DNA of 64,000 bases from a virus: the IMG/VR virus record IMGVR_UViG_3300037245_001320, positions 90,019-154,018 of that record. One strand, written 5' to 3'. The position numbers and the translations under genes were made by a program. How positions within the stretch are numbered: the first letter of the stretch is position 1; every line of letters starts with the position of its first letter. Below the pieces are notes generated by a model, which saw only the letters and a list, made by a program, of their open reading frames with translations, had not been told where the DNA came from and ran no database searches. Below, piece after piece: positions 16,819 to 63,581 of the stretch.

Positions 16819-17450
16819 TGCTCCTCCATAACAAACGTTTCTTTATCCATAACTGATACTTTTGAGTTACCTGTAACACCCCTCGAAACAGAAAAGATTC
16901 TATTAGCTGTATTTTTAATCTCTTTAGAATGAGTTACAACAATAAACTGGATACCTAAGTTTTCCGATATTGTTTGGACCAACTGACAAGCTTTTTCTAT
17001 CTGCTCGTCCCCGATCGCTTTGAAGACCTCATCTAATATGAAAATTGGGGTTGGGTTTTTAGTCAAGGTTAATAAAGCAACTCGTAAAGCTAAAGAAGCT
17101 ATAGCCATTGCACCTCCACCAGAACTAGCCCTAAATGATTCTTCAATTCCGCTCTTATACAGTACAGGTGTTGCAGTAATATTATTGTTCTTAGATTCAA
17201 TCTTCATCTTAAACTCATACTCATCTCCGAAGACCGTCTGGATGGCAACCGATACAATATCATTAAACTTACTAGCTAACTTGTCTGTTGCTTCATTAGC
17301 TAATAACTGTGCAATCATAGTAGCTTCCTTTAAGTCTAACATTGTTTCATCTAATACCAGAACAGAGTTTTTCTTCTTTTCTAATGATTCAAGTAATGTG
17401 TGTTGCTTCCCTTTTCTTTGATTTAACTTATCCCTAAAATGATTTATCAT
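16815..17450 (-). CDS. SbcC/Rad50-like ATPase, C-terminal half
   Basis: A 211-residue protein with the C-terminal ABC half-site only: signature motif ASSGGGAMAIASLALRVAL (about 108-126), Walker B PIFILDE (135-141), D-loop region and switch His174 in VVTHSKE. Only about 60 residues, possibly coiled, precede this. The N-terminal half with Walker A is a separate gene at 19385-20791. The two would have to assemble in trans with the SbcD-like nuclease (18437-19375) into an MR-type complex. The start overlaps the methyltransferase gene by 17 bases. Confidence 0.85.
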   Translation of the reverse strand: MINHFRDKLNQRKGKQHTLLESLEKKKNSVLVLDETMLDLKEATMIAQLLANEATDKLASKFNDIVSVAIQTVFGDEYEFKMKIESKNNNITATPVLYKSGIEESFRASSGGGAMAIASLALRVALLTLTKNPTPIFILDEVFKAIGDEQIEKACQLVQTISENLGIQFIVVTHSKEIKNTANRIFSVSRGVTGNSKVSVMDKETFVMEEQ

Positions 17451-18186
17451 TTCCTAATTTCCTCCTTGCTATTTCATAAGCTTTCAATCCAATATCACAA
17501 CCTATGAAATCTCTATTTAATTCTTTACACACTTCACCTGTTGTGCATGATCCCATATAGAAATCTCCGACTAAGTCTCCTTCATTAGAAGATGCTTTTA
17601 CAATTCTCCTTAATAAAGATAAAGGCTTCTGTGTGTTATACTCTCTTTTATTATGTAATGAGAAGTTACAATCGTCCCATACATTAGTTGGTATCTTTCC
17701 TCTCTTATATTTCTCAGGAGAGATTAACTGCCTCTTAGTCGTATTTAAATTAACCACAGATTTGTAAGGAACTCTTATGTCTTCTGTATTAAACACGAAG
17801 TCTTTAGATTTAGAATAAACTAATATCTGATCGTGCTTTTTAGAGAAATGTTTCTTATCTATTCCACCAACATTGTAACTCCAAATGATATAGTTAAGGA
17901 AGTTGTTGTACCCAAACACATCATCCATAATACATCTTATCCAATGAGAAATTCTATAATCCATCTGAAGATAGATAGTGCCTGTTTCAGATAGTACTCG
18001 ATGCATCTCTTTAATCCTTGGAACATAATGCTGGTATATGACTTCCTTATCAGGTTTTAAATCCTGAAAGTCTCTGAACTTCTTGCCAGTACCATATAAG
18101 CAATCGCAATATATTAGTTGAATATGATTAGCAGGGAGATCATTTAACAATTCAAGATTATCTTTATTGTATAATTCTAACATCAT
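17434..18186 (-). CDS. DNA methyltransferase (amino-type, motif order beta-like)
   Basis: A 250-residue SAM-dependent enzyme. The catalytic motif IV reads IYCDCLYGTG, that is D-C-L-Y in place of the usual D-P-P-Y. The SAM-binding motif I lies at the C-terminus as GDFYMGSCTTGEVCKELNRDFIGCD. The target-recognition part is in the middle. It probably methylates adenine-N6 or cytosine-N4, though the loss of the PP pair could lower activity. It is inserted between the two SbcC halves and overlaps both neighbours. Confidence 0.75.
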   Translation of the reverse strand: MMLELYNKDNLELLNDLPANHIQLIYCDCLYGTGKKFRDFQDLKPDKEVIYQHYVPRIKEMHRVLSETGTIYLQMDYRISHWIRCIMDDVFGYNNFLNYIIWSYNVGGIDKKHFSKKHDQILVYSKSKDFVFNTEDIRVPYKSVVNLNTTKRQLISPEKYKRGKIPTNVWDDCNFSLHNKREYNTQKPLSLLRRIVKASSNEGDLVGDFYMGSCTTGEVCKELNRDFIGCDIGLKAYEIARRKLGNDKSF

Positions 18187-33067: not shown

Positions 33068-33574
33068 CTAATTATTTATTATTAAGAAATTTTTATATAG
33101 TCTTGGAGTAATATCTCTCTGACTATAGATCCTTCTTAATATTTGTATAAGTGATTTATTATCTCTTTTATACAATCTATAAATTCTTACTGATAAAGGA
33201 GCTTGTACATAAAGTATTAAATCACACTTTTCAAGTAAGGTTGATTTATGTAAAACAGCTCCGTTTAATATGCTGCTTCCTTGAATATCTTCTAAAACTT
33301 GTTTTGTTATTAAAGGATGAACAAAGTCGTTTAAAACTTTCATAGCTCTTTTTGATTTAAATACTATCTTAGATAATTCCTTGGGATTCCTATACTGATT
33401 AAAAGGTACACCACACGTAGTGAGTAATTCACAACTTATAGCAAACATGTTTTCATCCACTATCTTATGTCCGTACAAATCTAAATCAAAATGAGTATGT
33501 CCTGTTTTCTCACTTAGTTTCTCAGAGATATAATTCTTACCTGATCCTGATTTTCCCACAATACCTATATTCAT
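33068..33574 (-). CDS. coaE: Dephospho-CoA kinase-like protein
   Basis: A 168-residue P-loop kinase. The P-loop is GKSGSGKN (7-14); HFDLDLYGHKIV matches the CoaE substrate region (D-D-x-x-x), FVHPLI matches the HP motif, and LILYVQAPLSVRIYRL the R-lid region. It is somewhat shorter than usual CoaE. It would phosphorylate dephospho-CoA to CoA, the last step of the pathway. It overlaps by four bases the gene for the preceding step (CoaD-like), which strongly supports the assignment. Asn replaces the usual Ser/Thr after the P-loop Lys. Confidence 0.75.
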   Translation of the reverse strand: MNIGIVGKSGSGKNYISEKLSEKTGHTHFDLDLYGHKIVDENMFAISCELLTTCGVPFNQYRNPKELSKIVFKSKRAMKVLNDFVHPLITKQVLEDIQGSSILNGAVLHKSTLLEKCDLILYVQAPLSVRIYRLYKRDNKSLIQILRRIYSQRDITPRLYKNFLIINN

Positions 33575-34527
33575 GACAGATATTTCTCATATGCTTTTAC
33601 ACCAAATTCCTGTAATGATCTAATCATGGATGAAGAAATATGTTGTAGCTCAGGTTTACATGTAAAATAAACAACAGGGTTATTAAAACCTGCATCAATT
33701 AAAGTCTGCTTCAAAGCTATCTCACTAGTTAAATCCTCTGTATTCCTTAATCCTCTTATCAGTGAATAGTTATTATCTTTAAATACATCCACTAATAAAC
33801 CATCATAGGAAATAAACTCCTGAATAGGATTTGCTATGTAGTAGGATTGTACTTTATCTCTGTTATGTCCTTGAGCAATAATAACCTTATCAAAAACTCC
33901 CTCAGCTTGTGTAACAATATCTTCATGACCTATATGAAAAGGATTAAAACTTCCTGCATACACTCCTATCTTGTACTGCTTATTAGTTACATAATTTATT
34001 AAAAAATCACAACTAATATACTCATCCTCACTAGATGTAAAATTATCTTGGTACTTTTTAAGGAATTCTAATCTTCCTTCTTTGTATTCCTCTAATGAGA
34101 ACTTCTGATACTCATAAAAAATAGCATCTTCATATTGTATAAGCTTACAACCTTCTTCTTTGAATATAGCTGTATCTGCTTGAACAATCCAATTCTTATT
34201 ATTATCTTCAAAATCTGCATAGTGCTTCTTTGTAGCTCTAATTAACTCTGCTACATACTGTCTATCAAAATCATTATCATCAGTATAGCAACTGTTACGA
34301 TTAGGATCGCTATGTCTCAACCATGCCATTGCGGATCTTTCTTCATTATCATCTCTGGAAGGATCATATATAAAGTCATGCCATACGATAGCATTAAATA
34401 AATGTTCATTCTGCGTTGGTCTGTTCAAACCACAGTATTCCAACATATTATAGATGTGCTGTATTGTATGAAATCTTCTGTGTGGTTCTGCATATGCTTT
34501 TAATACTTCTTCTGGTATATAACTCAT
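33571..34527 (-). CDS. HD-domain / phosphopantetheine adenylyltransferase (CoaD) fusion
   Basis: A 318-residue two-domain protein. Residues 1-165 resemble small HD phosphohydrolases: PHRRFHTIQHI (His20, His24), WHDFIYD (His50-Asp51) and a later QADTA. Residues 185-318 are CoaD-like: VYAGSFNPFHIGHEDIV carries the nucleotidyltransferase HxGH, FDKVIIA follows, LIRGLRNTEDLTSEIAL is a CoaD-specific stretch, and HISSSMIR is the ISSS motif. CoaD joins ATP and phosphopantetheine into dephospho-CoA. With CoaE next to it, the phage encodes the last two CoA steps. The HD domain's substrate is unknown; a related nucleotide or cofactor is possible. Confidence 0.82.
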   Translation of the reverse strand: MSYIPEEVLKAYAEPHRRFHTIQHIYNMLEYCGLNRPTQNEHLFNAIVWHDFIYDPSRDDNEERSAMAWLRHSDPNRNSCYTDDNDFDRQYVAELIRATKKHYADFEDNNKNWIVQADTAIFKEEGCKLIQYEDAIFYEYQKFSLEEYKEGRLEFLKKYQDNFTSSEDEYISCDFLINYVTNKQYKIGVYAGSFNPFHIGHEDIVTQAEGVFDKVIIAQGHNRDKVQSYYIANPIQEFISYDGLLVDVFKDNNYSLIRGLRNTEDLTSEIALKQTLIDAGFNNPVVYFTCKPELQHISSSMIRSLQEFGVKAYEKYLS

Positions 34528-34542
34528 TATATTATCTCCTTT

Positions 34543-42999: not shown

Positions 43000-45900
43000 T
43001 TACATAGCTATGTAATTTTCTTCGTAATCAGCTAAGTTCATTCTCTTCTCTTCCGGCTTTGATCCCCAGTTACCTTCAACATAGGTATCACAGTCCAATA
43101 CAAAATCAAGTGTAATCCAGTCGAACAGGGGATGGTTGTCTGTTCCTTTAACTAAAGCTAAAGTAATTATCTTATCAACCAATTCCTCCTCCGAAGGTTC
43201 TACTGAAACACAAACACTATCATGTACCTGCCCCACCAACTTAGATTTAAGATTTAATCTTTCAAACTCTTTTTGCACTATGTTCAAACCACATAATAGT
43301 TTCTCAAAGCTTCCGCCCTGGATAGAGTAACTTGAAGCAGTTCGTCTGTTGTGGACTGATCTTAAAACATGTCCCACAGGTGTTTGTAAATAACCTTGTT
43401 TAACAAATAATTTCCAAATATCCTGTTTATACTGGTAGTAGTCTTTGAATCGTACTTGCCAAAATTGGTACTCAGCTTCTTTAACTATTTCTTGGAAACT
43501 ATCTTTGTTGGCTATTCCATGAGCTTGGAAATGAGCACTCAACCAATCCTTCTGCTCAGTTGTAAAACTCATTATAGCTTCCCATATTGATTCAGTAATT
43601 CCTATATAATTGGAACCAAAGAACGCGGGGAAAACAAATAGCTTACCAGCTTGTCTTAATCTTTTCCACATACCTTCTGGTGCTTCTGTTAAAACACCAT
43701 CAATAGTATAAGCAGACAGATTATTTCTGTCATCAATCTTAAAAATATCCACGGCTGTATCACCATGTAAATCAGTCGAGCTATCAGAATTATAACGTAA
43801 TAATTCCATATCCCCACTTACAATAGATGCACAATAATTTTCAGCAGCGGAAAAGTCATATTCCTTCCACACTTGTCCTTTAAAAGGACCCATAAACGAT
43901 CTTGCTAATTTGGATAAACGGGGATCGTGCTTAATATTATTCTGAAAATTGTTAGAATTTGAGCTGCTCCTCCATGATAAAGTTAAACCTAATGGGAAAT
44001 TACATTTAACAACTCCATCATCTCCGCTCTCCCTAATATAGCCTACTAAGTAGGTTTGGACAACTTTAGCTAAAGCTTTCTTCTCTAAAATCAACTTACA
44101 CATTGGGGTATTTAACTTTTCTAGTGCTGCTTTATCTGTTGAGTAAGCTCCCGAAGCAGTCTTCTTTCCTGGAGGATGTTTAAGAATATCAAAGAAAAGG
44201 TGAGCCAACTGTTGCCCTGAGTTATAGTTCAGGGGTGTCTTTCCATCTTTGCCTCCATCCCATTGTTTAGCTTCATCACAATTTAAGATCTTACCATGCA
44301 GATCAGCAACCTCTTTGTCCAATTCCTCAATATTAGCTTGTAGCTTAACTTGATCAGTTTGTAAACCATTGTAAGTCATCTTAGCCATGGTAATTGCTCC
44401 TTGAGTACTAAACCTCACAGCATCCAACTCTCTCTTATTCATAAGCATAGGTATTACTTTCTTAACTAATTTTGTAGTGTATATACTATCAAGGCAGTTA
44501 TATTCCAGAATTTCATCTTCTGTTAGTGTACCTTTCTTTACTTCCTTCTCTCTTCTTTTATTCTCCTCTTCTATTTCTTTAGAATCTCCTTCTAAGGGAT
44601 AGAGTAAGCCAGCCTCTAAAAGTTTACCTCTAGCCAAGGCTTCTGGTAATTTATTGATTGTTTGATTACTTTTAAAGTACTTTGTGTCTTTATCAGCATC
44701 TCTCATTTTAAAGAAAGGTTTACACTTATCCCCATAACCAGCGTTTCCGAAGTGAAAATAGGTCTGAATTTTTAAATTCGATGCCATCCCACGGTGGTCC
44801 AGACCATGACATAATAGCTGTGTATCAATGTATATATTGTCCATCCAAACATCCCACTTACCTTTATAGGCTGATATTTCATACTGTACATTGTGTGCTA
44901 CTTTCATAACCTTTGGATCAGCCATGAGTTTAGCAGATGCTTTTACTATGTCTTCATCTTGAGTCATGTATGCTACATTTCTTTTTCCATCGGATAAACT
45001 CATACATAAAATCTCTGCTTCTTTCCTCTGAAACTTTAAAGAACTTGCCTCAACATCGTTAGAAACACATTTAACTGTGTGGAAGTATTTTATAGCATCT
45101 AAGATTTCTTGTTTATCTTTTAAGATCTCAATTAGATCATAAGCATCATCAATAGGAACTGGTTTATTCCAATGCTCCTTAGCTGATTTTAAAGCTTTAA
45201 TGAATCTGTCCCATTTAACCTTGAAATCATCACTTCTTAATACCTTATTATCAACTAAAGATATCTCTCGACTAACTGCCTCATCATAATATCTGGGTAT
45301 CTGTTGTCCTTGTTTTACTTTCTCTCTTCTCCACTCTTTATATCTACCTTGTCTATTCTTTAATTCCCATATGAGATCACGGGGGGAAAAAGACACTATT
45401 AAATTTGCCATAAATTCCTGATCTGGGATCACGTAAGATTCGTAGATATCCCATGAATTCGTGATGGAAAGCTTATGGGAAAGTAAAGTCGAAGTGGCTG
45501 AGTACCCAAATGCTAATATCACATTCACCTTCAACCTCTTAATATCATCATGAAGAATTTGAGCACAAGCTTTTCTAGCTATTCCCGAGCTTTTCTTATC
45601 CAACCCATCTTTATAACCTCTCACCGAATTTATTATGAATACATCCTTGTTAATATCTAATCCAGCTTCTTTCAAAGCACTTTTTAATAATTTAAACTCC
45701 TGCCCTATTATAGGTTTTCCTGACTCTAACCCATTGCTTGTCAACTCGTCACAAACTATTAAGATCCCTTTCTCACCTTTACCCCAAACAGGCATTGAGG
45801 GACTTCCTCCAATCTCAACCCACTTCCACTCTACATGTTCCTTCTGAGTAATCACCTCTTTCCCATTTTCATCAGTTTCTTTAATCTCAGGCAAACACTT

Positions 45901-46074
45901 CTCTTCATCTCTTACTTTAATCTTAGCATGAGAACATCTTCCGCAATCGTTACACCCATAGACCTTCTTCTTATTTGGTGCTTTTAATAGTGCTCTCTTC
46001 CCTTTAACTTGTGTTAAATCTTCAATCATATCCATGGGGGGACTGAAGAAGCCTCCTTTATTTCCTTCTATCAT
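43000..46074 (-). CDS. DNA polymerase I-type with N-terminal uracil-DNA-glycosylase-like domain
   Basis: A 1024-residue fusion. Residues 40-260 resemble family 4/5 uracil-DNA glycosylases: Cys41, 44, 47 and 60 as a likely Fe-S site, IGQEF, FIINSVRG and LAFGYSATSTLL. Residues 330-480 are a 3'-5' exonuclease (SNDVEASSL, KVAHNVQYEI, YIDTQLLC). Residues 560-1010 are a family A polymerase: motif A YDFSAAEN, motif B RQAGKLFVFPAFFGSNY, motif C QVHDSV (951-953 HDS, where most family A enzymes have HDE). This fusion type is known in SPO1-like phages. It should be the replicative polymerase. Confidence 0.9.
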   Translation of the reverse strand: MIEGNKGGFFSPPMDMIEDLTQVKGKRALLKAPNKKKVYGCNDCGRCSHAKIKVRDEEKCLPEIKETDENGKEVITQKEHVEWKWVEIGGSPSMPVWGKGEKGILIVCDELTSNGLESGKPIIGQEFKLLKSALKEAGLDINKDVFIINSVRGYKDGLDKKSSGIARKACAQILHDDIKRLKVNVILAFGYSATSTLLSHKLSITNSWDIYESYVIPDQEFMANLIVSFSPRDLIWELKNRQGRYKEWRREKVKQGQQIPRYYDEAVSREISLVDNKVLRSDDFKVKWDRFIKALKSAKEHWNKPVPIDDAYDLIEILKDKQEILDAIKYFHTVKCVSNDVEASSLKFQRKEAEILCMSLSDGKRNVAYMTQDEDIVKASAKLMADPKVMKVAHNVQYEISAYKGKWDVWMDNIYIDTQLLCHGLDHRGMASNLKIQTYFHFGNAGYGDKCKPFFKMRDADKDTKYFKSNQTINKLPEALARGKLLEAGLLYPLEGDSKEIEEENKRREKEVKKGTLTEDEILEYNCLDSIYTTKLVKKVIPMLMNKRELDAVRFSTQGAITMAKMTYNGLQTDQVKLQANIEELDKEVADLHGKILNCDEAKQWDGGKDGKTPLNYNSGQQLAHLFFDILKHPPGKKTASGAYSTDKAALEKLNTPMCKLILEKKALAKVVQTYLVGYIRESGDDGVVKCNFPLGLTLSWRSSSNSNNFQNNIKHDPRLSKLARSFMGPFKGQVWKEYDFSAAENYCASIVSGDMELLRYNSDSSTDLHGDTAVDIFKIDDRNNLSAYTIDGVLTEAPEGMWKRLRQAGKLFVFPAFFGSNYIGITESIWEAIMSFTTEQKDWLSAHFQAHGIANKDSFQEIVKEAEYQFWQVRFKDYYQYKQDIWKLFVKQGYLQTPVGHVLRSVHNRRTASSYSIQGGSFEKLLCGLNIVQKEFERLNLKSKLVGQVHDSVCVSVEPSEEELVDKIITLALVKGTDNHPLFDWITLDFVLDCDTYVEGNWGSKPEEKRMNLADYEENYIAM

Positions 46075-53750: not shown

Positions 53751-54383
53751 TTATTTGATCGGATTCCTAAAAGAAGTTACTCTATCAAATCCGTGTTTTT
53801 CTGCTCTTTCAACATCTGTTAAAGTAGTTTCTTTATCTTCATCATTGTTTAAAGAAGATATATAAGTTTGTAATTCTATCCAAATTTCCTCTGGTGTAAA
53901 TAATGAAGTTAAGGAAGTTTCTTTTAGGATAGAATTTGCGTATGAGTCTAAATTAAAGAACTCTTCTCTTACTCCTACATCTTTAATATCCTGTCCAAAC
54001 TTTCCTGTTAGATCATCTCTGTTATTTCTTCTCTCCCATCTATAAAATGTTCTAGCTTTCCTGATAGATAAAGGAGTTGAATAATAGTGTTTGTTTTCTT
54101 TATATGTTTTTACTATTTCAAAATCACAAGAGTCAAATTGTGTAAGGTTATTAGCTTCATGTGTTTTTATATTAACTGCTTTTAACAATGTCTGTATAAA
54201 CCCATATTCTATTAGTATAAAAGAGTTATTTAATACTGATCTGTGATCTACCATGTTATATAAGTCTTCGTCTGCTATTACTGTTGATCCTCTTCTATCT
54301 AGTACTACTCTCTTATCTGTTCCATACATGTTTGGGGATGATAAGTAATCGTAATAATCTTTGTTTTTATCTATTATGTACAT
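53751..54383 (-). CDS. Unknown protein paired with DUF262-like gene, 210 aa
   Basis: Alpha/beta protein sharing one base with the DUF262-like gene upstream, so the two are probably translated together. Rich in Arg/Asn in the middle. No motif recognised. Confidence 0.6.
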   Translation of the reverse strand: MYIIDKNKDYYDYLSSPNMYGTDKRVVLDRRGSTVIADEDLYNMVDHRSVLNNSFILIEYGFIQTLLKAVNIKTHEANNLTQFDSCDFEIVKTYKENKHYYSTPLSIRKARTFYRWERRNNRDDLTGKFGQDIKDVGVREEFFNLDSYANSILKETSLTSLFTPEEIWIELQTYISSLNNDEDKETTLTDVERAEKHGFDRVTSFRNPIK

Positions 54384-55105
54384 TATGCTAGTTTCTCCTT
54401 TAACTCTCTTACTCTATCTAATTCTTCTTTTGTGTGAGGTGTACCACTTTGGTTAAGCTGTAAATACCATGTAAGTATTTCCTCTTCTGTTTGAAAATCT
54501 AATACATGTAATTTAAAAGAACACACTAAGTTTGGTAATCTATCAATATCATTATGATAGATAGTTTCAAATATAGGGAACTCATTCTTTAGGAAAGATA
54601 CAACAGCAGTTATTCGTTGTAAACCATCTATGCAGAACATAGTGTTCTCACCTGAGGTCTCTCTGTCCCAAGTAGGAGAATTGAAATAAATATCTTTTCC
54701 AATTTTTCCACCCTTCATAATGTGCTCTATATAAGATATTTGTTGTTCCTCAGACCACACTCTGTTTCTCTGGAAATAAGGATTAACGATTTCTTCGTAT
54801 GTTTGTCCTGTCTCATCTGCTCGATCTAAGATCCAAGGTTCTATTCTTTTCCACTCAGTATTAACTGCATATTCTCCACTAGGTGTTAAATACTTTGGTA
54901 GGTCTCCACCTGTTAATTTTCTAGTTATTGTTTCCATAATTTTACCATCTTCATCAGTAATAGTTATAGTTGTATAGGATTCGTATGGGAGGCTTACAGA
55001 TGAGGATCTTTTATAGCACTCAGAATAAGCACTGAATGTTCCTGTTTTTAATACTTTGTTTGTTTTATTGTCTGTCATTGCCCATGTATACGTTTTCTCT
55101 AGCAT
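54383..55105 (-). CDS. DUF262-like (ParB/Srx-fold) protein
   Basis: A 240-residue protein. NPYFQRNRVWSEEQQISYIEHI, then FCIDGLQRITAVVSFLKNEF is the classic DUF262 pattern, with QR and DGLQR residues forming the nucleotide-handling site of ParB-like NTPases. In GmrSD and related systems the domain is fused to an HNH nuclease; here it stands alone. It may bind DNA or hydrolyse NTP in anti-restriction or modification control. Confidence 0.75.
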   Translation of the reverse strand: MLEKTYTWAMTDNKTNKVLKTGTFSAYSECYKRSSSVSLPYESYTTITITDEDGKIMETITRKLTGGDLPKYLTPSGEYAVNTEWKRIEPWILDRADETGQTYEEIVNPYFQRNRVWSEEQQISYIEHIMKGGKIGKDIYFNSPTWDRETSGENTMFCIDGLQRITAVVSFLKNEFPIFETIYHNDIDRLPNLVCSFKLHVLDFQTEEEILTWYLQLNQSGTPHTKEELDRVRELKEKLA

Positions 55106-58512: not shown

Positions 58513-58658
58513 TTCTTATCCTCTAGGTGTATGATGATAGCATTTCCATCTTGTGAAACACTCTCTATCTCATGTCTTGATCCATCTGAGAGTTCTATCA
58601 GCATTCTGCTTCCGTCGTTTTGTTGCTTAATTCTCTCTGTTAATTCTTGTTTGTTCAA
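58509..58658 (-). CDS. Unknown small protein, 49 aa (TTG start)
   Basis: Begins at TTG 58658 with GGAG seven bases upstream and ends at TGA overlapping the DUF488 start. Sequence starts (M)NKQELTERIKQQND. No motif recognised. Confidence 0.6.
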   Translation of the reverse strand: MNKQELTERIKQQNDGSRMLIELSDGSRHEIESVSQDGNAIIIHLEDKK

Positions 58659-59580
58659 TGTTTTTCTCCTTTTTTATTTATTCTTTCAGATGCAATATTA
58701 AAGTAATTCTCATCCAACTCTATACCTATAAAAGCTCTATTTAGATTCTTACACGCAACTCCAGTTGAACCTGATCCCATTGTGAAATCTAATACTGTAT
58801 CGCCTTCATTGGTATATGTTTTGATTAGATACTCCATTAGTGCAACTGGTTTTTGTGTTGGGTGTACTGCTGATTTCTGCTTGTCTGTCTTAAACTTTAA
58901 TACTGTTCTAGGGTATCTTTCTGTAGAATCATACCCTGTTAAACCATGTTCACCATAAACATCTGTCTTAACGCTATTTCTTTTATGTTCTGCTGTACTT
59001 ACTTTTCTTTCATGCCCTGTAGTTTTTTGAGGATTATATAAACAAGGCTTTTTATAAAATACACTAATTATTTCATTTGCTTTCATAGGCATTTTCTTAG
59101 CATTTAAATGTCCTGTAGCTGTGGTCTTTTCCCAAATCCAATCATACTTAAACTCTTTTAGGTTGCTCATTCGTAAATTACTGGAGAAGGGTTCTGATCC
59201 AAATAATACAATAGGAGTTGTATCTTTTCTTATTTTCCTTAATTTATCCCATAAACCCTCGATGCAAAGTTCTTTAAACTCATCTCTGATTAGTTCATAT
59301 GAATCGTAACTTGTTGAGAGTCGGTGAAGGATATACTCATTTTCATACATTACAACTTCTTTTTTTCCTTTTAATACTTTTATATACTTATTGAAAGGAA
59401 TGATTGAATCCCATTTACAGGCTGTTGTTCCAGTCATCCGTATGGAGGATCACAAATAATAGAATCAACCTTGATGTTGTTAGAAATTAAATAATCCATA
59501 ACTTCTAAGCATTCATCATTGTATAGCTCTGCTTTGCAGTCTCCATACGAAATAACCTCCTTTTTATAGTCTTTATTCAT
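58655..59580 (-). pseudogene. DNA methyltransferase broken after DPPY
   Basis: The N-terminal part starts at 59580 (ATG overlapping the HNH stop) and reads 48 residues up to SIICDPPYG, where TGA ends it at 59434. The rest is in another frame from ATG 59437 to 58655 and contains the remaining motifs (IVLFGSEPFSS, DWIWEKTTATG, HPTQKP, DFTMGSGSTGVAC). One missing base in TACGGATGACT explains the split. The junction ATGA could let ribosomes restart, giving two chains. Intact, it would be a beta-type amino-methyltransferase. Confidence 0.8.
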
Positions 59581-62314: not shown

Positions 62315-62769
62315 CTAAACTCCACCGCTGTTATATTCAAATTAGGTGTTACTCGTTCTATAATACCTTTAATCTTTTCCCAATCTCCACCTGCATATCC
62401 TGAACCAATAAAAGGAATTCCCATCTTAGTTTGAGATAAAGTATCCCACTCATTTAATCTAGTGAACACTTTCTCTATTGCATCATAATCTACAGAAGAC
62501 TTTCCACCATACCTGTACTGAGTATAAGCATTGATAATAATTTGAGAATATTCTCTCTCGTATAAAATAACATGAGAACAATTACCTAATTTATTAATAT
62601 CACCCTTCTTGGTTTTCAAATCTGCTTTATATGCCTCTGGATATTGTTCTTTTATTTGTTTTGCTATTCCTGCTCCCATTGTATTAAAACAGTTACACCC
62701 ATGTATAATTGTATCAAATTGTTTTAATCTAAAATATTCTAGTAGGTTTCCTCTTATTGTTTCCATCAC
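62311..62769 (-). CDS. Macrodomain protein (ADP-ribose hydrolase-type)
   Basis: A 152-residue protein covering one whole macrodomain: IRGNLLEY, IIHGCNCFNTMGAGIAKQI (ligand Asn and Gly loop), then PFIGSGYAGGDW as the second ADP-ribose loop. It is closest in pattern to the Poa1p/DarG-like group. It likely removes ADP-ribose from proteins, nucleic acids or phosphate ends. The NADAR gene at 51911 and SLOG gene at 56457 point to a theme of ADP-ribose handling, possibly against host toxins. It overlaps the FliM/FliN-like gene by four bases. Confidence 0.88.
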   Translation of the reverse strand: MMETIRGNLLEYFRLKQFDTIIHGCNCFNTMGAGIAKQIKEQYPEAYKADLKTKKGDINKLGNCSHVILYEREYSQIIINAYTQYRYGGKSSVDYDAIEKVFTRLNEWDTLSQTKMGIPFIGSGYAGGDWEKIKGIIERVTPNLNITAVEFR

Positions 62770-63581
62770 TTAAATACCTCAACCAAGCGTACTCCAAACT
62801 TCTCATCAACTAATACCACTTCTCCTAGCCCAATCTGTTTTCCATCCACAAATACAGGGACAGCATCTCCGACATTCCTATCTAATTCTATAATCGAACC
62901 TTCTCCGAGTTCTCCTACATCACCTATACTTATCTCTGCTTTTCCTAGACTAGCTTCTATATTTGTTTTTATAGCATCTTTATCAAATTTCATATTATTC
63001 TCCTTTAATTCATTTTTGTGTAACCATTTACTTAATTCTTTAGCTGGTATACAGATAGTAAATAACCCCTCTAGTTCTTCAGAACATATCTCAAAAGTAA
63101 ATAAGCAAATCATCTCATGCCTTTCCTCATAAAATCTATATTCTGTGGTGTAATCTTTATGTCCTGCTGTACAACCTCCTAAATTAGGGAGGTTTTTGAA
63201 TAGATTATCTTGTGGTATGTCTGCTAAGTTCTTATCTAGTTCTATAATAATATACTTTAATCTATCATTAAGAGCGCGGTATACTCTAGAAACGGAAGGT
63301 ATACTTCTTGTGAACTCCTCATAGGTTAATTGATCTATAGAGCATAAGTTACATTGGTATTTTTCTCCTAAAAGCTCTTGTATCTCCATATGTATTAAGA
63401 ATGAGTATCTCTGGAAAATGTCATTTAGTTTTGTTAAATCTTTCTTGGTTAATATATCTGGTCTTTGAAAATCATATATTTTTATATTCTTTCTTTGTGT
63501 TACTTCTTGTTCTCCTGTATCTTCTTCTGATATTACAGTTAATAATTGATCTATGTCATCTTGACTTAATACTTCTGTCAT
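62766..63581 (-). CDS. Flagellar switch-like protein, FliM/FliN chimera
   Basis: A 271-residue protein. Residues 1-14 (EVLSQDDIDQLL) match the CheY-binding N-terminal peptide of FliM; KIYDFQRPD (35-42) and SIDQLTYEEFTRSIP (81-95) are further FliM hallmarks. Residues 96-190 resemble a shortened FliM middle domain, with an LGG near 134-136 where FliM has its FliG-binding loop. Residues 208-270 are a SpoA/FliN-type domain (GKAEISIGDVGELGEGSIIEL, GEVVLVDEKFGVRL). Domain order resembles FliM or FliY, but the C-terminus is FliN-like. AGGAAG precedes its ATG. It could enter the host C-ring and alter switching or sequester CheY. I know of no described phage system of this kind; that remains to be checked. 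Confidence 0.85.
   Translation of the reverse strand: MTEVLSQDDIDQLLTVISEEDTGEQEVTQRKNIKIYDFQRPDILTKKDLTKLNDIFQRYSFLIHMEIQELLGEKYQCNLCSIDQLTYEEFTRSIPSVSRVYRALNDRLKYIIIELDKNLADIPQDNLFKNLPNLGGCTAGHKDYTTEYRFYEERHEMICLFTFEICSEELEGLFTICIPAKELSKWLHKNELKENNMKFDKDAIKTNIEASLGKAEISIGDVGELGEGSIIELDRNVGDAVPVFVDGKQIGLGEVVLVDEKFGVRLVEVFK

What the first reader, a model, noticed from the sequence alone, without database searches (positions are those of the whole stretch)
33068..34527. Two-gene coenzyme A module: HD-CoaD fusion plus CoaE
The last two steps of CoA synthesis are encoded next to each other with a four-base overlap, and CoaD is fused to an HD phosphohydrolase-like domain. Phages rarely carry CoA genes. 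Possible roles are rebuilding CoA after a host defence attacks it, altering the dephospho-CoA pool (used as an RNA 5' cap), or making a related cofactor. The HD domain might remove a damaged or signalling nucleotide.
Basis: partly seen in the sequence, partly recalled or inferred. Interest (0 to 1): 0.82.

Follow-up and report, generated by a model that had tools for sequence, protein, structure and literature searches.

The report
Phage HD–CoaD fusion with CoaE
This large phage carries the last two enzymes of coenzyme A synthesis as adjacent genes; the first is fused to an uncharacterised HD-type hydrolase that turns up beside the same enzyme again and again, in unrelated phages and in some bacteria, which suggests a clean-up partner for coenzyme A synthesis that has not yet been described.

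Summary
Window 33571-34527(-) encodes a 318-aa HD-hydrolase + CoaD fusion. Its stop codon overlaps the start of a 168-aa CoaE (33068-33574(-)) by ATGA. CoaD and CoaE are supported by profiles, active-site residues and predicted folds. Phage CoaD and CoaE are already on record, so their presence alone is not new.

What seems undescribed is the HD partner. The same fusion occurs in about 20 other viral contigs and in rare Bacteroidota, where in 12 of 15 genomes it is the only CoaD found. In other lineages an HD of this family is fused C-terminally (CoaD-HD, CoaD-CoaE-HD), is an overlapping neighbour of CoaD, or precedes a CoaD-CoaE fusion. Trees put these in separate HD and CoaD clades, so the pairing arose more than once. 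Two phage copies keep the HD active site while their CoaD domain has decayed.

Best explanation: a CoA-finishing module whose HD domain hydrolyses wrong or damaged products or precursors of the CoaD step, as YqeK does when fused to NadD (PMC9426524). CoaD and CoaE identity is well supported; the HD substrate and the benefit to the phage are inferred. Counter-defence by CoA rebuilding is possible but has no direct support.

The parts
33571..34527 (-). HD-CoaD fusion gene, 318 aa
34033..34527 (-). HD phosphohydrolase domain, residues 1-165; residues conserved in all 24 aligned fusions: H20, H24, H50, D51, Y54, N61, E62, D118, E139; T99 and H102 nearly invariant
   Evidence: phrog_19425 2.1e-14; alignments
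33571..33975 (-). CoaD (PPAT) domain, residues 185-318, with short middle region; GSFNPFHIGH 192-201, K225, RGLRN 258-262, D265, E269, SS 298-299
33571..33574 (-). ATGA stop/start overlap between HD-CoaD and CoaE
   Evidence: sequence read
33068..33574 (-). CoaE (dephospho-CoA kinase), 168 aa, ends before the usual C-terminal helix; Walker A GKSGSGKN, D32, R137
34536..34540 (-). Shine-Dalgarno AGGAG before the fusion gene
   Evidence: Shine-Dalgarno use over the record

Best explanation
A phage CoA-finishing module. CoaD (PPAT) joins 4'-phosphopantetheine and ATP to give dephospho-CoA; CoaE phosphorylates that to CoA; overlapping stop and start codons suggest coupled translation. The fused HD domain is a metal-dependent hydrolase that works at the CoaD step as a proofreading or clean-up enzyme: it hydrolyses wrong or damaged products or precursors (for example dephospho-CoA analogues made with dATP or CTP, or damaged phosphopantetheine), as the HD protein YqeK does when fused to NadD. 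The phage gains a CoA supply that keeps working late in infection, when host synthesis fails and dNTP pools are distorted. Shown by sequence, structure prediction or comparison: gene identities, intact active sites (one Walker A deviation in CoaE), HD-CoaD linkage in several lineages. Inferred: all activities, the HD substrate, the benefit to the phage.
For: CoaD identity; fused homologues are the only CoaD found in 12 of 15 genomes, most of which do have CoaE. CoaE identity. HD linked to CoaD more than once: N-terminal fusion, CoaD-HD (L079), CoaD-CoaE-HD (L157), overlapping gene pairs (L240, L244, L247, L248, L264), HD before CoaD-CoaE fusions (L091, L097, L098, L228). HD tree and CoaD tree place these apart from the N-terminal fusions with strong support. 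In trans in jumbo phages. HD linked to CoaD more often than to CoaE: many fusions lack a neighbouring CoaE. HD active-site residues conserved in every fused copy aligned, kept even where the CoaD domain decayed (L002, L227). Mechanistic precedent: HD protein YqeK fused to NadD, same nucleotidyltransferase superfamily, hydrolyses mis-adenylated NaAD analogues (PMC9426524).
Against: No activity is shown. The HD also exists alone in many bacteria and phages without a nearby CoaD, so its substrate need not be a CoaD by-product. Most phage records with a CoaD and no HD fusion show no HD (21 of 27). The HD is not in the YqeK family by profile: the only YqeK match, PDB 2o08, has E = 0.68 and no YqeK model was hit. 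The CoaD part scores below the TIGR01510 cut-off. CoaE has Asn after the Walker A Lys and a shortened C-terminus, so it may be weak.
Confidence: 0.45

Rival explanations
1. HD is a 4'-phosphopantetheine phosphatase that disposes of surplus or oxidised phosphopantetheine before CoaD uses it (damage pre-emption, as I recall for DUF89 phosphatases fused to pantothenate kinase).
For: HD sits at the phosphopantetheine-using step, often without a neighbouring CoaE. Some HD-domain enzymes are monophosphatases (PMC8177086).
Against: A phosphatase on CoaD's own substrate would oppose the pathway unless selective; no direct test.
Confidence: 0.2
2. HD releases 4'-phosphopantetheine from carrier proteins (as AcpH does, from memory a non-canonical HD protein) and hands it to CoaD: the phage recycles host acyl carrier protein arms into CoA.
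For: It would explain why a phage needs only CoaD and CoaE and not the earlier steps. The HD superfamily link of AcpH is from memory.
Against: No profile similarity to AcpH (hhalign probability 0.3%; no PF04336 hit); 12 of 16 bacteria with the fusion or triple fusion also carry a separate AcpH-family gene above cut-off.
Confidence: 0.1
3. HD is an Ap4A or dinucleoside polyphosphate hydrolase, or acts on another signalling nucleotide, and its link with CoaD is only that both handle adenylyl transfer.
For: YqeK hydrolyses Ap4A (PMC8177086, PMC9426524); stand-alone HD copies exist across phyla.
Against: The repeated, specific linkage with CoaD would be unexplained; no YqeK family match.
Confidence: 0.12
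4. Counter-defence: the module rebuilds CoA after an unknown host defence degrades or blocks CoA, with HD removing the blocked form, by analogy with NAD+ reconstitution by phages.
For: Recurrent in phages of unlike hosts (Shine-Dalgarno test); one group of phages with related CoaD carries genes next to it that read as Prs and Sir2-like (my reading of the sequences).
Against: The same fusion is the only CoaD found in many bacteria, so it is basic metabolism there; no CoA-targeting defence found in the papers searched.
Confidence: 0.1
5. The CoaD-like domain uses another substrate (for example NMN) and the module makes a related cofactor.
For: TIGR01510 cut-off is not reached; the middle region is shortened.
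Against: CoaD outscores every NMN/NaMN adenylyltransferase model by more than 50 bits; the CoaD-type K and RGLR residues are conserved; homologues are the only CoaD in many genomes; paired with CoaE.
Confidence: 0.03

Closest known systems
NadD-YqeK fusion (mycoplasmas; YqeK = COG1713)
   Same: HD hydrolase fused to an adenylyltransferase of the same superfamily acting in cofactor synthesis; there the HD domain hydrolyses wrongly adenylated products (PMC9426524)
   Different: Partner is CoaD, not NadD; HD is usually N-terminal; HD is not in the YqeK family by profile
Bacterial CoaD / PPAT (TIGR01510)
   Same: HxGH-type motif, Lys, RGxR, Glu and SSS residues; PPAT fold
   Different: Shorter in the middle by about 10 residues (my count against canonical CoaD), below the family cut-off, carries an N-terminal HD domain
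Dephospho-CoA kinase CoaE (PF01121, TIGR00152)
   Same: Walker A Lys, catalytic Asp, LID Arg, fold
   Different: 168 aa, ends before the C-terminal helix; Asn after the Walker A Lys
Eukaryotic CoA synthase (COASY)
   Same: CoaD and CoaE activities made together
   Different: Here two genes; some other phages (L068, L074, L091, L097, L098, L228) do fuse CoaD-CoaE
Phage NAD+ reconstitution pathways (NARP1)
   Same: Phage-borne cofactor synthesis genes
   Different: CoA instead of NAD; no matching defence known

Membership tests
CoaD / PPAT | HxGH-type motif and Lys, RGxR, Glu, SSS active-site residues | tested here: met
   H198-x-G200-H201, K225, R258-R261, E269, S298-S299
CoaD / PPAT | PPAT fold | tested here: met
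   listed PDB matches all PPAT, TMt up to 0.77
CoaD / PPAT | curated TIGR01510 score cut-off | tested here: not met
   77.3 of 103.3 bits. The bacterial fusions, mostly the only CoaD of their genomes, score 81.5-101.6 bits and one 103.9, so the cut-off appears not to cover this subfamily
CoaD / PPAT | makes dephospho-CoA from phosphopantetheine and ATP | not testable with these tools
   needs assay
CoaE | PF01121 and TIGR00152 cut-offs | tested here: met
   61 of 27 and 69.5 of 65.55 bits
CoaE | Walker A Lys followed by Ser or Thr | tested here: not met
   GKSGSGKN: Asn14 follows Lys13; this lowers the claim of full activity, while family membership by profile and fold stands
CoaE | catalytic Asp and LID Arg | tested here: met
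   D32 and R137 invariant in 13 sequences
HD superfamily | H...HD...D metal ligands in a helical fold | tested here: met
   H24, H50-D51, D118 invariant; helical domain in the model
YqeK (COG1713) | match to YqeK profile or structure | tested here: not met
   no YqeK model hit; PDB 2o08 at E = 0.68 only
AcpH (PF04336) | profile match | tested here: not met
   no hit; hhalign probability 0.3%
COASY bifunctional CoA synthase | CoaD and CoaE in one polypeptide | tested here: not met
   two ORFs with 4-nt overlap

The most novel reading that the evidence does not exclude
The HD domain is the founding member of a new class of CoA-metabolite proofreading or repair hydrolase, and phages carry the HD-CoaD-CoaE module to keep or rebuild CoA when the host pool is damaged, possibly by a defence that attacks CoA and has not been described.
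Probability: 0.15. Interest if true: 0.9.

Novelty: new variant of a known kind. Interest (0 to 1): 0.6.

Why it matters
Metabolite proofreading has been shown for NAD synthesis (NadD-YqeK) but, as far as I found, not for CoA. A hydrolase family of unknown function that is repeatedly joined to CoaD, in phages and in bacteria where it is the only CoaD found, gives a concrete and easily tested candidate. It also makes the question why phages carry the last CoA steps testable with one small two-gene module.

Tried and rejected
Single-protein scans of viral contigs with the fusion or CoaE found no relatives; profile scans did. The first HD alignment was too diverse to scan; A4 worked. AcpH as relative of the HD: rejected on profile comparison (a first comparison used wrongly oriented AcpH ORFs and was redone) and weakened by co-presence, though distant HD kinship cannot be excluded that way. 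PDB profile search for the HD gave nothing significant. Fold search of the whole fusion is dominated by PPAT and says nothing on the HD. Neighbours of bacterial stand-alone HDs: no informative conserved partner except in Caulobacterales, where coaD lies 1.4-2.3 kb upstream in the loci measured, with what read as cyclophilin genes between and queA beyond; this may be ordinary gene order. The 'Microcystis phage MaAM05' hit was set aside as bacterial DNA (ribosomal protein genes near coaD). No literature found on an HD-CoaD fusion or on COG4339; only open-licence papers were searched. The COG4339 label for this HD family is from memory.

Full report
Observation. The window is G000:90019-154018, the end of a 154,018-base IMG/VR record with a portal protein and a major head protein of tailed phages elsewhere in the record. 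On the minus strand, 33571-34527 encodes 318 aa and 33068-33574 encodes 168 aa; the stop of the first and the start of the second share ATGA. A Shine-Dalgarno AGGAG precedes the fusion gene. Upstream on the same strand are a 73-aa ORF and a DNA-polymerase-type exonuclease; a dUTPase lies about 1 kb downstream.

CoaD. Residues 185-318 match PF01467 above its cut-off, TIGR01510 with 1.3e-21 but 77.3 of 103.3 bits, and solved PPATs. NMN and NaMN adenylyltransferase models score at most 22 bits. In 24 aligned fusions G192, S193, F194, P196, G200, H201, K225, R258, G259, R261, N262, D265, E269, S298 and S299 are invariant and H198 nearly so. The predicted structure (pLDDT 89.2, pTM 0.84) finds only PPATs at the top of the PDB.

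CoaE. PF01121 and TIGR00152 cut-offs are both met. A profile of phage CoaE finds dephospho-CoA kinases with E from 5e-49 to 1e-30 and the next kinase at 1e-13; the predicted fold agrees. Oddities: Asn after the Walker A Lys, and an end before the usual C-terminal helix. The CoaEs next to HD-CoaD fusions in L021 (160 aa) and L048 (163 aa) are short as well.

HD domain. phrog_19425 'phosphohydrolase' at 2.1e-14; no Pfam or NCBIfam HD model hit. H20, H24, H50, D51, D118 and E139 are invariant in 19 phage HDs and in all 24 fusions. Residue numbers are those of the 318-aa protein; searches used it without its first Met.

The fusion recurs. A CoaD profile scan of IMG/VR kept 80 loci of 153. With three iterated profiles I found HD-CoaD fusions in L021, L024, L026, L045, L047, L048, L053, L058, L065, L076 and L093, a CoaD-HD fusion in L079/L080, CoaD-CoaE fusions with a separate HD gene next to them in L074, L091, L097 and L098, a CoaD-CoaE fusion without HD in L068, and in L035 an HD-CoaD-CoaE series broken once by a frame change. 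CoaE is directly next to CoaD in L021, L048, L066, L077 and its near copies, L088, L099, L102 and others. A scan with an HD query (four of its five rows, the window's included, come from fusions, so it is not free of bias) gave 46 viral loci, of which I count 18 with CoaD fused or directly adjacent (the printed total of 21 includes three weak, distant matches; five of the 18 are contigs already seen in the CoaD scan). If the two genes were independent, about 46 x 153 / 2.9 million = 0.002 would be expected, a rough figure since both scans are incomplete.

It is cellular too. The one scan of bacterial genomes returned HD-CoaD fusions of 317-369 aa in 16 loci of Bacteroidota (Kapaibacterium and Ignavibacteria MAGs counted there) and a 604-aa CoaD-CoaE-HD protein in a Brocadiia MAG (L157). 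I searched 16 of these genomes with TIGR01510, 15 with HD-CoaD and one with the triple fusion. The fused ORF is the only CoaD match of any strength in 12 of the 15 HD-CoaD genomes and also in the triple-fusion genome (the other matches, about 21-25 bits, look like NadD relatives). Three genomes (two Mucilaginibacter isolates and one Bacteroidetes MAG) have a second, canonical CoaD. CoaE is found in 14 of the 16, so incompleteness of the MAGs is an unlikely reason for the missing canonical CoaD. In 198 Bacteroidota drawn evenly, including the centre genome G007, three have the full fusion: it is rare.

More than one origin. The HD tree (99 rows) splits into a clade with all N-terminal fusions plus 13 phage HDs without a CoaD match, and a clade with the bacterial stand-alone HDs and the C-terminal, gene-pair and CoaD-CoaE-linked HDs (support 98; root by midpoint). 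The CoaD tree (115 rows) places the N-terminal fusions in a subfamily with a short middle region and L079, L157, L240/L248, L264 and the CoaD-CoaE fusions in the canonical one (97). Domain order also differs. Both trees are quick ones with many weak inner branches; the number of origins is not fixed, but one origin does not fit.

HD without CoaD. In L002 (LR756501) and L227 the region after HD continues the fusion; in L002 the alignment runs through the CoaD part, with the HxGH and RGLR motifs gone, and L227 looks the same by eye. LR756501 has an intact CoaD-CoaE pair elsewhere. Six of 14 records, twelve of them fetched through an HD not fused to an intact CoaD and two (LR745206, LR756502) through their CoaD, hold both an HD and a separate CoaD. 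But 21 of 27 records fetched through a CoaD show no HD (L035, the broken series, is one of the six that do), so HD is a frequent partner, not a required one.

Host. 73% of the longer ORFs of the record have a Shine-Dalgarno core against 13% in random stretches; in the Bacteroidota loci with the fusion the figure is 3% against 7%. The host of this phage is therefore probably not a Bacteroidota, and the fusion occurs in phages of both translation styles (small samples per locus). Direction of transfer is not resolved.

Mechanism. CoaD and CoaE catalyse successive steps. HD goes with CoaD more than with CoaE. The nearest worked-out case is NadD-YqeK: an HD hydrolase fused to an adenylyltransferase of the same superfamily removes products made with the wrong nucleotide (PMC9426524). 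I therefore take proofreading or clean-up at the CoaD step as most likely (about 0.45), followed by a phosphopantetheine phosphatase (0.2), Ap4A-type hydrolysis (0.12), release of phosphopantetheine from carrier protein (0.1; weakened) and counter-defence (0.1). No step of this has been assayed. That infection distorts dNTP pools and would raise the error rate of CoaD is a suggestion of mine.

Known and new. coaD and coaE are reported among abundant viral genes in snow viromes (PMC11097641), and CoaD is annotated in Caulobacter and Brevundimonas phages. I found no paper on an HD-CoaD fusion; the library holds open-licence papers only.

Noticed in passing
window 62766-63581 (-): FliM/FliN-like flagellar switch protein (PF01052 2.5e-18, PF02154 1.3e-11) with an N-terminal LSQDDIDQLL segment that resembles the CheY-binding motif of FliM (from memory), at the end of the record; phage gene or host DNA not settled.
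   Followed up: partly
window 43000-46074 (-): DNA polymerase I-type protein with an N-terminal uracil-DNA glycosylase-like domain.
   Followed up: no
L023, L025, L027, L028, L030, L033, L041, L043, L051: Phages with a stand-alone CoaD of the short subfamily whose neighbours read as Prs, Sir2-like and Thg1-like proteins (not every neighbour in every locus); the three names are my reading of the sequences, not profile hits.
   Followed up: no
L157:4753-6567: CoaD-CoaE-HD triple fusion, 604 aa, in a Brocadiia MAG; bacterial or viral contig not checked.
   Followed up: partly
L068, L074, L091, L097, L098, L228: Phage CoaD-CoaE fusions, resembling eukaryotic CoA synthase; all but L068 lie next to a separate HD gene.
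   Followed up: partly
L002:3920-4891; L227:3920-4843: HD followed by a decayed CoaD domain while the HD residues stay intact.
   Followed up: partly
MW495066.1 (L012): 'Microcystis phage MaAM05' record carries ribosomal protein genes, nusG and secE near coaD, so it is probably bacterial DNA.
   Followed up: no
window 17434-18186, 58655-59437, 54383-55105 (-): Two N6/N4 DNA methylases and a GmrSD N-terminal-like protein.
   Followed up: no
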